A DNA stretch of 64,000 bases from Acidobacteriota bacterium. GTDB taxonomy: Bacteria; Acidobacteriota; Terriglobia; Terriglobales; SCQP01. The stretch lies in assembly GCA_027459505.1 (NCBI GenBank), contig DAIDIE010000043.1, forward strand, positions 62,001 through 126,000, read 5' to 3'. The notes below the pieces were generated by a model that made no database searches, had not been told where the DNA came from, and worked only from the letters and a program-made list of their open reading frames with translations. Shown here piece by piece: positions 46,187 through 48,902 of the stretch (within the stretch, counting starts at the first letter, position 1; each line of letters begins with the position of its first letter). A program made the translations under genes and the position numbers.

Positions 46187-46263
46187 GGGCGCGTAGCTCA
46201 GCCGGATAGAGCATCTGCCTTCTAAGCAGAGGGTCGCAGGTTCGAGTCCTGCCGCGCCTACCA
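46187..46263 (+). tRNA. tRNA-Arg (UCU)
   Basis: A complete cloverleaf of 77 nt with encoded CCA can be drawn. The acceptor stem is GGGCGCG with CGCGCCT, with a G-T pair at the first position. The D stem is GCTC/GAGC, the anticodon stem TCTGC/GCAGA with loop CTTCTAA (anticodon TCT), and the T stem GCAGG/CCTGC with loop TTCGAGT. Its 3' part is duplicated 1351 bp downstream, marking it as an integration target. Confidence 0.95.
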
Positions 46264-46271
46264 ATGATTTC
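46219..46271 (+). repeat. att site copy 1 (3' end of tRNA-Arg)
   Basis: These 53 bp run from the anticodon stem-loop through CCA and 8 bp beyond. They are repeated at 47570-47622 with one mismatch (G46240 against C47591). The copy inside the functional tRNA keeps the T-stem pairing, the distal copy breaks it. This is typical of attL/attR left by tyrosine-recombinase integration. Confidence 0.85.
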
Positions 46272-46304: not shown

Positions 46305-46323
46305 GGGTCAAATAAGGGTCACG
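46305..46323 (+). repeat. GGGTCA-type repeat, copy 1
   Basis: GGGTCAAATAAGGGTCACG is identical at 47456-47474 and differs at two bases at 46780-46798. Each copy is a direct pair of GGGTCA half-sites 11 bp apart. One copy lies near each end of the mini-island. They may be arm-type integrase sites or regulator sites. Confidence 0.6.
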
Positions 46324-46328
46324 CCGAA

Positions 46329-46715
46329 CTACTGAATCGGGATGTCGCTCGCAAGTGATCCGCCGGGAACCATTCCGGTTCCCGCCTCTCTCTTCACGAA
46401 CTCGACCAGCCGCCGTTGAATGCGTCGCTTGGCGTCCATCCCCAGCTCACCGTAAACGTTCGAGGTGGTCGCGATGTCTTCGTGCCGGAGGAGCGTCTTC
46501 ACGTCCTCCAGTGCGACGCCCGCTTCCTTGCCCCAAGCGCTCACCGTGTGCCGGAAGCTGTGCGCCGCGACCAGAGCCGGGCCGCGGTCGCGGTTATAGC
46601 CCGGATTGTGAATCCATTGCAGATCGGGGGCGAAGCTCAGCCATGGCTTCAGGAACCAAGTGTAGTAGGACTCCAGGATCGTTTCGCGACCATAGTTGAG
46701 CCGTCCGGAGCATCG
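46329..46715 (-). pseudogene. tyrosine recombinase (integrase), C-terminal remnant
   Basis: Read on the minus strand, the open frame begins after a stop near 46720 and lacks a start. It contains ALVAAHSFRHT with the His-x-x-Arg box, VSAWGKEAGVALEDVKTLLR, HEDIATTSNVYGEL with the catalytic Tyr, and a basic tail. The N-terminal DNA-binding domain and first catalytic Arg are missing; residues before PALVAAH do not resemble an integrase. Its location next to the tRNA att site is where an intact integrase would be. It is probably inactive. Confidence 0.7.
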
Positions 46716-46779: not shown

Positions 46780-46798
46780 GGGTCAAACTTGGGTCACG
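46780..46798 (+). repeat. GGGTCA-type repeat, copy 2
   Basis: GGGTCAAACTTGGGTCACG lies between the integrase remnant and the toxin gene. A further half-site in reverse orientation (TTTGACCCA) is at 46740-46748. See copy 1. Confidence 0.55.
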
Positions 46799-46833: not shown

Positions 46834-47148
46834 TTATTCAGGAGCTGAACCACTTCCAAGCCGCTCGCGCCAATAGGCAGGTTCGCGTTTGGCGTGCATG
46901 ACCGCCAGAATCCAGACCTGATCCGGTTCGTCGAGGTAAACCACGGAATATGGGAATCGATTGGCAAGGGCTCGCCGGGCTGGTGGTTGAAAGTTCAGGT
47001 AGCGGTCTGGATGCCGGCGCACATTCCCAATGACACGCTCAATTTCCTGGTAGAAGCTTTGGCCCAACTCCGTTGAAATACTGGAATAGTGGCGTGCCGC
47101 GGCGGCGTACTCCTCCATCGCCGCTGGATGAAATCTGGCGGGCTTCAC
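46834..47148 (-). CDS. ParE/RelE-family toxin
   Basis: The 104-residue protein has the ParE/RelE fold pattern: PARFHPAAMEEYAAAARHYS at the N-terminus, SFYQEIERVIGNVRRHPDRY, RRALANRFPYSVVYLDEPDQ and VWILAVMHAKREPAYWRERL with the C-terminal Arg/Trp. Such toxins inhibit gyrase or cleave mRNA at the ribosome; the HPDRY and HAKREPxYW features favour the ParE branch. The ATG overlaps the antitoxin stop (ATGA). It is in the mini-island beside the integrase remnant. Confidence 0.85.
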   Translation of the reverse strand: MKPARFHPAAMEEYAAAARHYSSISTELGQSFYQEIERVIGNVRRHPDRYLNFQPPARRALANRFPYSVVYLDEPDQVWILAVMHAKREPAYWRERLGSGSAPE

Positions 47149-47369
47149 TGGCTGACGATTCGCCGAATGCGCGCCGACACCTCTTCGGCCGCAATCCCTT
47201 CGACGCGGCCGGCCCGGACGTCATCCACTCGCCGGGACACCTCGGCCCGCCATGCGGCATCGACGTCGGCACGGCCCCGGTGCAAGTCGGCGGTCAACCG
47301 CTCCACCAACTCGCCGACCATTTCTGGCGGCCAAGTTCTGGCTTCTTGTAGGATTTCTTCCACCGTCAT
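47145..47369 (-). CDS. antitoxin of the addiction-module (Unstab_antitox) family
   Basis: I start at ATG 47369, which gives a compact 74-residue protein. A longer frame from 47528 adds non-conserved sequence over the likely promoter. It reads TVEEILQEARTWPPEMVGEL, VERLTADLHRGRADVDAAW then EVSRRVDDVRAGRVEGIAAE and ends VSARIRRIVSQ. The EVxRRxxxxxxGxVxxxxxEE pattern is the signature of small putative-addiction-module antitoxins that pair with ParE/RelE toxins. It precedes and overlaps the toxin gene, and one 19-bp GGGTCA-type repeat lies 87 bp upstream of its start. Confidence 0.85.
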   Translation of the reverse strand: MTVEEILQEARTWPPEMVGELVERLTADLHRGRADVDAAWRAEVSRRVDDVRAGRVEGIAAEEVSARIRRIVSQ

Positions 47370-47455
47370 GGCTCCAGCATAGTCGAGATCCGAGATTGGT
47401 TCAATTCGACGCCACCATGACCGATTTTTGACCAAAACTCGCACGCCGAGAACGT

Positions 47456-47474
47456 GGGTCAAATAAGGGTCACG
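47456..47474 (+). repeat. GGGTCA-type repeat, copy 3
   Basis: This is identical to copy 1 (19 of 19 bases) and lies 87 bp upstream of the antitoxin start and 96 bp inside the distal att copy. It may double as an operator for the toxin-antitoxin operon. Confidence 0.6.
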
Positions 47475-47569
47475 GTCCTCGCAACCATCGATTTCCAGAC
47501 TTTCCGCAGAGTTCCCGAGAGGTGTCATCCGCGCCGCTAAGTGATTGAAAATGCTCGCGCCTCACGGGA

Positions 47570-47622
47570 CTTCTAAGCAGAGGGTCGCAGCTTCGAGTCC
47601 TGCCGCGCCTACCAATGATTTC
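47570..47622 (+). repeat. att site copy 2 (tRNA-Arg 3' fragment)
   Basis: These 53 bp match 46219-46271 with one mismatch in the T stem. The D arm and acceptor 5' strand are absent, so it is not a tRNA gene. It marks the far end of the mini-island. Confidence 0.85.
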
Positions 47623-47861
47623 ATTGGACTTGCCTCGTTCTCGTCACTACGACTCCCGACCTTGTTGTGCCCAATTTTGAGCCCACTCTGGTGCAGCGAA
47701 TGCGAATGCTCGATCGCCTCGCTCGCGGGGGCTTCGCTTCCACACGGCTGGGCGAGTAGCGCCCCAGCATTTTTACCTGACGTGACTGACTCGGCCCTGG
47801 CAGCACCGGCGAATCTCGCCGATGCGCACATTGAGATCGGCTCGTTCCTGTTCGCCTGTAC

Positions 47862-47890
47862 TTGACATGTTTGTTAAGTATGCGTAGACT
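47862..47890 (+). promoter_or_regulatory. sigma70-type promoter of the DUF6932/XRE genes
   Basis: TTGACA (47862-47867), a 17-bp spacer and TAGACT (47885-47890) form a near-consensus promoter. Transcription would start about 47897, just at the ATG of a nine-codon frame (47899) and 28 bp before the DUF6932-like start. The transcript would therefore have almost no leader. Confidence 0.7.
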
Positions 47891-47924
47891 GTTTAGCCAT
47901 GGCGGAAAGCGAGGTTGAGATTTT

Positions 47925-48459
47925 GTGATCCCACCCTTTCAGCACGATGGGCTATTGCCTCCAGGCGACTACGAGGTTTCGTTCGACGAATTGCGCAACT
48001 CGGTCCTGGTAGACGGTCCGACTGGGGACCAAGGAGCGTGGGATCGCAGTTGGAGGAGTCATCATGATCGGCAACCTTGAAGTGCTCACAAAGCAGCTTT
48101 GGCAGGTTGGAGTCCGCGACATTTATGCAGATGGCTCGTTTGCCGAAGACAAGGACCATTCGAACGATATCGACGGATATTTTGTCTGCGGGCTGCGGGA
48201 ACTGGCCTCGGGCGAGTTGCAGCGGGAACTGAATCTGCTCGATCCATTCAAGATCTGGACCTGGGATCCCCACACGAGAAAGCCCTATCGGGGCTATCCG
48301 AAGAAGCAGCTTCCGATGTGGCATCGCTACCGCATCGAGTTGTACCCTCACGTGCCCGGATGGGGGAATGATTTGGAATTTCCGTCCGCGTTCCGCCAAT
48401 CCCGCCGGGACGGCACGCCACGGGGGATTGTCAAAATCAGGTACGGAGGGCTCTCATGA
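47925..48459 (+). pseudogene. DUF6932-like nucleotidyltransferase-fold protein, split by a +1 frameshift
   Basis: Two frames make one protein. GTG 47925 opens IPPFQHDGLLPPGDYEVSFD, typical for the DUF6932 N-terminus, and runs to a stop at 48080. The second frame (ATG 48064) gives 131 residues: LEVLTKQLWQVGVRDIYADG, SFAEDKDHSNDIDGYFVCGL, YRIELYPHVPG and SAFRQSRRDGTPRGIVKI. The GS-F and DxD-like (NDIDGYF) pattern recalls minimal nucleotidyltransferases. Removing one base near 48060 joins the halves. It is a real mutation, a recoding site or a sequence error. The stop overlaps the XRE start (ATGA). Confidence 0.65.
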
Positions 48460-48902
48460 TTCGCAACGAAGCTGAATATCAGAACGCTTCTGCTCGCCTG
48501 AAAGAAGAACAAGCCAGGCTCACCGAGCATCGCGCTCGCCTCGCCGCGGCTGGGATGTCGCCGGAGGAAATGAAGCACGTCATCGATCCGATCGAATCCT
48601 TCCATCTACAGCTCAGGGAGGAGGTCGAAAGCTATGAACGGCTGAAGCGGGGCGAGTTCGACGAACTCGAGAATCTCCGCGGCCTCGGACATCTCCTCAT
48701 CGCGCTGCGGATAGCGCAGGGGATCTCTCAACGCGAATTGGCCTACAAGCTGGGCGTGCACGAGTCCCAGGTTTCGCGGGATGAACGGAACGAATATTTT
48801 GGAATCACCCTGGAGCGCGCCATCAGGATCCTGGATGCGTTGAACGCCAAGCTGCGAACGAAAGTGGAGGTCGAGCCCGGGCGCGACATGCTTGCAGTGT
48901 GA
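48456..48902 (+). CDS. XRE-family helix-turn-helix regulator (possible antitoxin)
   Basis: The 148-residue protein has a charged coiled-coil N-half (NASARLKEEQARLTEHRARL) and a C-terminal XRE domain (LRIAQGISQRELAYKLGVHE, SQVSRDERNEYFGITLERAI) with ALNAKLRTKVEV after it. It overlaps the DUF6932-like gene by 4 bp. A nucleotidyltransferase-fold gene followed by an overlapping HTH gene is the layout of type II or MNT-like toxin-antitoxin modules. The HTH protein would neutralise and autoregulate. This functional pairing is inferred, not shown. Confidence 0.8.
   Translation: MIRNEAEYQNASARLKEEQARLTEHRARLAAAGMSPEEMKHVIDPIESFHLQLREEVESYERLKRGEFDELENLRGLGHLLIALRIAQGISQRELAYKLGVHESQVSRDERNEYFGITLERAIRILDALNAKLRTKVEVEPGRDMLAV

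What the first reader, a model, noticed from the sequence alone, without database searches (positions are those of the whole stretch)
47862..48902. Possible toxin-antitoxin module: frameshifted DUF6932-like gene with XRE partner
A near-consensus promoter drives a nucleotidyltransferase-like gene that overlaps an HTH gene, next to another addiction pair. The first gene is split by one extra base near 48060. That could be inactivating, or a recoding signal that limits toxin amount.
Basis: partly seen in the sequence, partly recalled or inferred. Interest (0 to 1): 0.6.

Follow-up and report, generated by a model that had tools for sequence, protein, structure and literature searches.

The report
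Decayed nucleotidyltransferase toxin with intact repressor
The two genes are a broken copy of a widespread but untested bacterial gene pair, probably a growth-stopping nucleotide-transfer enzyme and the DNA-binding protein that holds it in check; the odd extra base is simple damage, while the partner gene and its control switch remain intact.

Summary
A DUF6932 gene (47925-48459) is split by a +1 shift near 48060 and overlaps an XRE gene (48456-48902) by ATGA.

Of 52 homologous loci from many phyla, all carry the same XRE gene just downstream. In 42 the first gene is a single open frame and none shares this shift, so recoding is unsupported and the copy is most likely a pseudogene.

Intact homologues have the invariant polymerase-beta nucleotidyltransferase residues (GS, DxD, distal E) and a confident model whose PDB matches are nearly all nucleotidyltransferases, each individually weak. 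The "promoter" -35 box is half of a conserved palindrome, CTTGACA-N4-TGTCAAG (34 of 44 loci, about 1% of controls), probably the XRE operator.

The first gene is broken with XRE intact in eight independent cases; the reverse occurs once. In one lineage XRE stayed under purifying selection (dN/dS 0.08) after the enzyme core was deleted. Distant relatives have XRE fused to an ImmA peptidase in PD-lambda-2-like operons.

Best reading: a HigBA-like module with a nucleotidyltransferase toxin, toxin dead here, antitoxin/repressor kept. Toxicity is untested.

The parts
47861..47878 (.). Near-perfect inverted repeat CTTGACA-N4-TGTTAAG, probable operator of the XRE protein; overlaps the -35 hexamer
   Evidence: 13/14 match to CTTGACA-N4-TGTCAAG; the only such site in the 64-kb window; 34 of 44 homologous upstream regions score 11 or more, against about 0.9% of control stretches; only spacing 4 gives this
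47862..47890 (+). Sigma-70-like promoter TTGACA-17-TAGACT
   Evidence: Consensus scan, 10/12; -35 conserved in homologues
47925..48063 (+). 5' piece of the DUF6932 gene (GTG start); its frame runs on to a stop at 48080
   Evidence: PF22014 model 1-30, E 4e-4; 72% identical to L020 N-terminus
48052..48066 (+). Shine-Dalgarno-like GGAGG plus ATG at the frame break, present only in this copy; possible internal restart
   Evidence: Sequence; none of 40 homologues has ATG at this codon (an invariant Leu) and 1 of 40 has an SD-like string upstream; such strings are common in the window
48060..48063 (+). Site of the +1 shift
   Evidence: Alignment with L020 and other homologues
48064..48459 (+). 3' piece of the DUF6932 gene; holds the GS (48133 on), DxD (up to 48174) and distal Glu (48337-48339) residues
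   Evidence: PF22014 model 35-141, E 1.8e-17; invariant residues
48358..48362 (+). Junction of a 30-bp in-frame deletion relative to homologues (removes the SGI-D region)
   Evidence: Alignment with L020 and the family
48456..48902 (+). XRE gene: N-terminal two-helix hairpin plus C-terminal HTH; probable antitoxin and autorepressor, intact
   Evidence: HTH_3 E 2.8e-9; 88% identical to L020; no departures at positions 80% or more conserved; model pLDDT 90.9

Best explanation
The window holds a decayed copy of a two-gene toxin-antitoxin-type module. In intact copies the first gene (DUF6932) encodes a small polymerase-beta-fold nucleotidyltransferase that probably transfers a nucleotide to a cellular target and stops growth (target inferred, perhaps tRNA or protein). 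The overlapping second gene encodes an XRE protein that probably binds and restrains it and represses the operon at a palindrome overlapping the -35 box. In this copy the enzyme gene has lost function through a +1 shift and a 30-bp deletion, while the repressor and its operator are kept. Shown here: the lesions, conserved pairing, catalytic residues, predicted fold, conserved palindrome and loss pattern. Inferred: toxicity, neutralisation, operator binding, target.
For: All 52 loci found with the DUF6932 fragment carry the same XRE gene downstream, often with the same ATGA overlap; 42 have the first gene as one open frame. Invariant or near-invariant G72 S73 D83 D85 E140; model pLDDT 89.8; the VIA-align list is almost all nucleotidyltransferases, Z 4.7-5.7 over about 100-129 residues. 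Palindrome at conserved place in 34/44 loci. Eight independent cases of broken DUF6932 with intact XRE (window, L032, L039, L053, L061, L068, L070/L071, L075) against one of the reverse (L052), although the search query was DUF6932. After a shared 234-nt deletion of the DxD core in L070/L071, XRE shows 26 synonymous against 9 nonsynonymous changes, dN/dS 0.084. The XRE HTH resembles HipB antitoxins and C proteins. Sporadic presence: only G000 among 60 near relatives.
Against: No member of this family has been shown to be toxic. Structural matches are weak one by one (Foldseek E 0.056 or more). The eight-to-one loss bias is modest (length-weighted P about 0.05) and rests on metagenome assemblies. 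L052 has a broken XRE with an intact enzyme gene. The distinction between pseudogene and sequencing error for the single base cannot be made without reads.
Confidence: 0.6

Rival explanations
1. The extra base is a sequencing or assembly error; the real gene is one open frame with only a 30-bp in-frame deletion.
For: The genome is a draft of 45 contigs; the rest of the gene is well conserved, dN 0.075 to L020 in the 3' part.
Against: No homopolymer at the site; a second independent lesion removes a conserved loop; an otherwise invariant Pro next to DxD is Ser here.
Confidence: 0.15
2. Programmed +1 frameshifting joins the two pieces and limits the amount of enzyme.
For: A CCT TGA stop context lies at 48075-48080, where a +1 slip would restore the length of the protein (sequence).
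Against: No homologue has a break here; the GGAGG lies about 21 nt from the stop, far from the spacing known for prfB (general knowledge); the slip would replace an invariant Leu and its neighbours; the 30-bp deletion remains.
Confidence: 0.03
3. The module is an XRE-regulated nucleotidyltransferase with another role (a phage-defence effector or modifying enzyme) and not a toxin-antitoxin pair.
For: All 40 homologues match PADLOC candidate PDC-M63A; XRE-ImmA cousins sit in PD-lambda-2-like operons.
Against: Compact overlapping genes, autoregulatory palindrome, loss of the enzyme with retention of XRE. The E. coli PDC-M63AB tested showed no defence (PMC12409345). The two readings overlap, as many defence systems are toxin-antitoxin systems.
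Confidence: 0.17
4. Roles are reversed: XRE is the harmful partner and the enzyme neutralises it, as MNT does in HEPN-MNT, or as PD-lambda-2A does for PD-lambda-2B.
For: PD-lambda-2B, an XRE-peptidase fusion, was toxic alone and was rescued by A (PMC9519451).
Against: The plain XRE lacks the peptidase; eight loci keep XRE after losing the enzyme, which would be harmful.
Confidence: 0.05

Closest known systems
DUF6932 (Pfam PF22014) / PADLOC candidate PDC-M63A
   Same: Sequence family membership of the first gene
   Different: Function unknown in Pfam; PDC-M63AB was tested once in E. coli without defence activity (PMC12409345); the XRE partner here matches no PDC-M63B model at E 0.1
PD-lambda-2 (HigB-like A, XRE-ImmA peptidase B, beta-protein C)
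   Same: Distant cousins of this XRE are fused to the PD-lambda-2B peptidase region and followed by a PD-lambda-2C-like gene, with DUF6932 in the A position in L073
   Different: The window XRE has no peptidase and no third gene; the A component of PD-lambda-2 is HigB-like, not DUF6932
Xress-MNTss of Streptococcus suis
   Same: XRE antitoxin with a nucleotidyltransferase toxin and autoregulation at a promoter with palindromes (PMC8406773)
   Different: The toxin there is described as similar to kanamycin nucleotidyltransferase; its sequence was not compared here
HigBA-type modules
   Same: Toxin gene first, XRE antitoxin second, autoregulation at a palindrome (general knowledge)
   Different: The first gene is a nucleotidyltransferase fold, not a RelE/HigB fold
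MenT / AbiEii nucleotidyltransferase toxins
   Same: Polymerase-beta-fold nucleotidyltransferase toxins; MenT modifies tRNA ends (PMC11541572, PMC10435456, abstracts)
   Different: Different family; no DUF1814 match; different antitoxin

Membership tests
DUF6932 (PF22014) | Match to the Pfam profile over the curated cut-off | tested here: met
   3' piece 64.5 bits against cut-off 27; 40 of 40 aligned homologues match
Polymerase-beta nucleotidyltransferase superfamily | GS motif, DxD and a distal acidic residue | tested here: met
   G72, D83, D85, E140 invariant and S73 nearly so in 44 sequences; all retained in the 3' piece in the window
Polymerase-beta nucleotidyltransferase superfamily | Nucleotidyltransferase fold | tested here: inconclusive
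   Confident model; nearly all listed PDB matches are nucleotidyltransferases, but Z is 5.7 at best and Foldseek E 0.056 or more
Type II toxin-antitoxin system | Two adjacent, conserved, small genes in one operon | tested here: met
   52 of 52 loci
Type II toxin-antitoxin system | First protein toxic, partner neutralises it by binding | not testable with these tools
   Needs expression experiments; only indirect support from the loss pattern
Type II toxin-antitoxin system | Antitoxin autoregulates at an operator | tested here: inconclusive
   Conserved palindrome over the -35 box; binding not shown
PD-lambda-2 | XRE fused to an ImmA/IrrE peptidase | tested here: not met
   The 148-aa XRE has no Peptidase_M78 match and no PD-Lambda-2_B match; only distant cousins do
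Programmed +1 frameshift gene | Conserved break and signals in homologues | tested here: not met
   42 of 52 homologues are one open frame; none of the others breaks at this codon

The most novel reading that the evidence does not exclude
The break is not only decay: GGAGG plus ATG, found at this codon in none of 40 homologues, restarts translation exactly at the frame break and makes a shortened nucleotidyltransferase that keeps GS, DxD and the distal Glu and keeps ribosomes running into the overlapping XRE start, so that a weakened or redirected enzyme, or a leader that secures repressor supply, has been selected. In line with a leader role, all four independent internal deletions seen in the family are in frame (chance 0.012).
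Probability: 0.08. Interest if true: 0.5.

Novelty: new variant of a known kind. Interest (0 to 1): 0.38.

Why it matters
If intact homologues are toxic, DUF6932-XRE would be a family of nucleotidyltransferase toxins, spread over many phyla and so far without an assigned function, with a shared operator that allows a simple reporter and binding test. The link to PD-lambda-2-like operons suggests that the same XRE module has been coupled to a peptidase and a third gene, possibly for sensing phage infection. The damaged copies show that the repressor persists under selection after the enzyme is lost.

Tried and rejected
Recoding: rejected on comparative grounds. Sequence profile search of DUF6932 against PDB gave only chance matches to serpins. 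An operator-plus-minus-10 exact pattern in 99 phylum genomes found nothing, as it was too strict. The XRE profile in 396 phylum genomes found only the own genome and G320. A phylum search centred on a planctomycete locus was not accepted. Synteny around tRNA-Arg in relatives was too diverged to show an empty site. Phages: no match of XRE. L022, L066 and L069 were left out of the lesion census because N runs or gaps in the assembly could explain their breaks. Literature on DUF6932 by name: none in the library. dS between the window and L020 is near saturation, so relaxed selection could not be tested by dN/dS; the check at conserved positions is weak (2 against 1 departures at 90% or more). The CutA, cGAS and poly(A) polymerase rows were not taken as family assignments.

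Full report
Observation. The region reads as described. A sigma-70-like site lies at 47862-47890. The ORF from GTG 47925 runs to 48080 and a second ORF runs from ATG 48064 to 48459. The two pieces match successive parts of the Pfam family DUF6932. The gene at 48456-48902 overlaps by ATGA and has an HTH_3 domain. The neighbouring minus-strand pair 46834-47528 is a ParE toxin with a TIGR02574 antitoxin.

The break. Fifty-two homologous loci were found with the 3' piece. In 42 of them the first gene is one open frame across the site of the break. The closest, L020 of an Acidobacteriaceae genome, is 82% identical in the enzyme part and 88% in XRE and has no break. The window copy has one extra base between TGGAGGAGT and ATGATC. 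It also lacks 30 bp in frame, which removes a loop (SGI-D-x-G) conserved in the family, and has Ser in place of an invariant Pro beside DxD. Two lesions and one unusual residue are more easily explained by decay than by one sequencing error, but only reads can decide. No slippery site is conserved, and none of the other homologues breaks at this codon, so programmed frameshifting has no support.

What the intact gene is. In 44 aligned sequences G72, D83, D85 and E140 are invariant and S73 nearly so, the pattern of polymerase-beta-type nucleotidyltransferases. The predicted structure of the L020 protein is confident, mean pLDDT 89.8. Its PDB matches are weak singly (Foldseek E 0.056 or more), but the VIA-align list, Z 4.7-5.7, is nearly all nucleotidyltransferases: poly(A) polymerase, AadA, TdT, polymerase lambda, CCA-adding enzyme, cGAS, CdnE. 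HEPN-MNT antitoxins appear in the Foldseek list.

The partner. XRE follows the enzyme gene in all 52 loci. Its model has an N-terminal two-helix hairpin and a C-terminal HTH that resembles HipB and restriction-modification C proteins. The window copy agrees with the family at every position that is 80% or more conserved.

The operator. The -35 hexamer is half of the palindrome CTTGACA-N4-TGTCAAG. Of 44 upstream regions, 34 score 11 or more of 14, against about 0.9% of control stretches. Only a spacing of 4 gives this, and the site lies mostly 45-65 nt before the start. In the window the score is 13 and the site is unique. The simplest reading is an XRE operator that blocks the promoter. Binding is inferred.

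Direction of loss. With assemblies that contain N gaps left out, the enzyme gene is broken and XRE intact in the window, L032 (nonsense), L039 (nonsense), L053 (shift near the N-terminus), L061 (N-terminus missing), L068 (core deleted), L070/L071 (DxD to loop deleted, one shared event) and the Frigoriglobus plasmid L075 (core deleted). The reverse is seen only in L052. Under equal hazard by length the chance is about 0.05, and the search query favoured intact enzyme genes. The four independent internal deletions (window, L068, L070/L071, L075) are all in frame, chance 0.012.

Selection after loss. L070 and L071 share the same 234-nt deletion, bounded by a 5-base repeat, at a locus where the related genome L045 holds an intact pair. 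Between them XRE has 26 synonymous and 9 nonsynonymous changes, dN/dS 0.084, Fisher P about 1e-11. The repressor is thus kept without its enzyme, as expected for a solitary antitoxin or regulator. This assumes that the deletion predates their split.

Relation to known systems. All 40 aligned homologues match PADLOC candidate PDC-M63A. A two-gene PDC-M63AB system deleted in an E. coli isolate showed no defence (PMC12409345). Distant XRE cousins on alphaproteobacterial plasmids are longer and carry an ImmA/IrrE peptidase. In Sinorhizobium terangae the order is DUF6932, XRE-peptidase, beta protein; the latter two match PD-Lambda-2_B and PD-Lambda-2_C. In PD-lambda-2 itself the first gene is HigB-like, and overexpressed B was toxic and rescued by A (PMC9519451). 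This puts DUF6932 in a toxin-like position but warns that roles in the fused form may differ. An XRE and nucleotidyltransferase pair has been reported as a toxin-antitoxin system in Streptococcus suis (PMC8406773); family identity with DUF6932 was not tested.

Setting. The module is absent from 59 near relatives, which suggests horizontal gain. A tRNA-Arg gene (46187-46263) and a 53-bp repeat of its 3' end (47570-47622, 98%) enclose the ParE pair and an apparent integrase remnant. The DUF6932 module lies just outside the second repeat.

Verdict. A real but damaged member of a conserved, uncharacterised nucleotidyltransferase-XRE module. The frameshift is most likely inactivating. The family, its operator and its link to PD-lambda-2-like operons are of more interest than the frameshift.

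Noticed in passing
46187-46271 and 47570-47622: tRNA-Arg(TCT) gene and a 53-bp, 98% identical repeat of its 3' end 1351 nt downstream, the layout of attachment sites of an integrated element.
   Followed up: partly
46329-46544, minus strand: Short ORF that ends in RHEDIATTSNVYG, by eye like the C-terminal end of a tyrosine integrase; no Pfam match at E 0.001.
   Followed up: partly
46305-46323, 46780-46798, 47456-47474: Three copies of a 19-nt repeat GGGTCAAATAAGGGTCACG around the ParE pair.
   Followed up: no
46834-47528, minus strand: ParE toxin with TIGR02574 antitoxin, 4-nt overlap, apparently intact.
   Followed up: partly
L073 2106-4850 (Sinorhizobium terangae plasmid pCB3126_2): PD-lambda-2-like operon with DUF6932 in place of the HigB-like first gene.
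   Followed up: partly
L075 2228-2974 (Frigoriglobus tundricola plasmid): Core-deleted, unannotated DUF6932 remnant before an intact XRE gene; operator-like palindrome 13/14 upstream.
   Followed up: yes
G010 contig 197, G012 contig 1, G018 contig 7: Second partial copies of the tRNA-Arg 3' end 3-6 kb from the gene, suggesting that this tRNA is an insertion site in relatives too.
   Followed up: no
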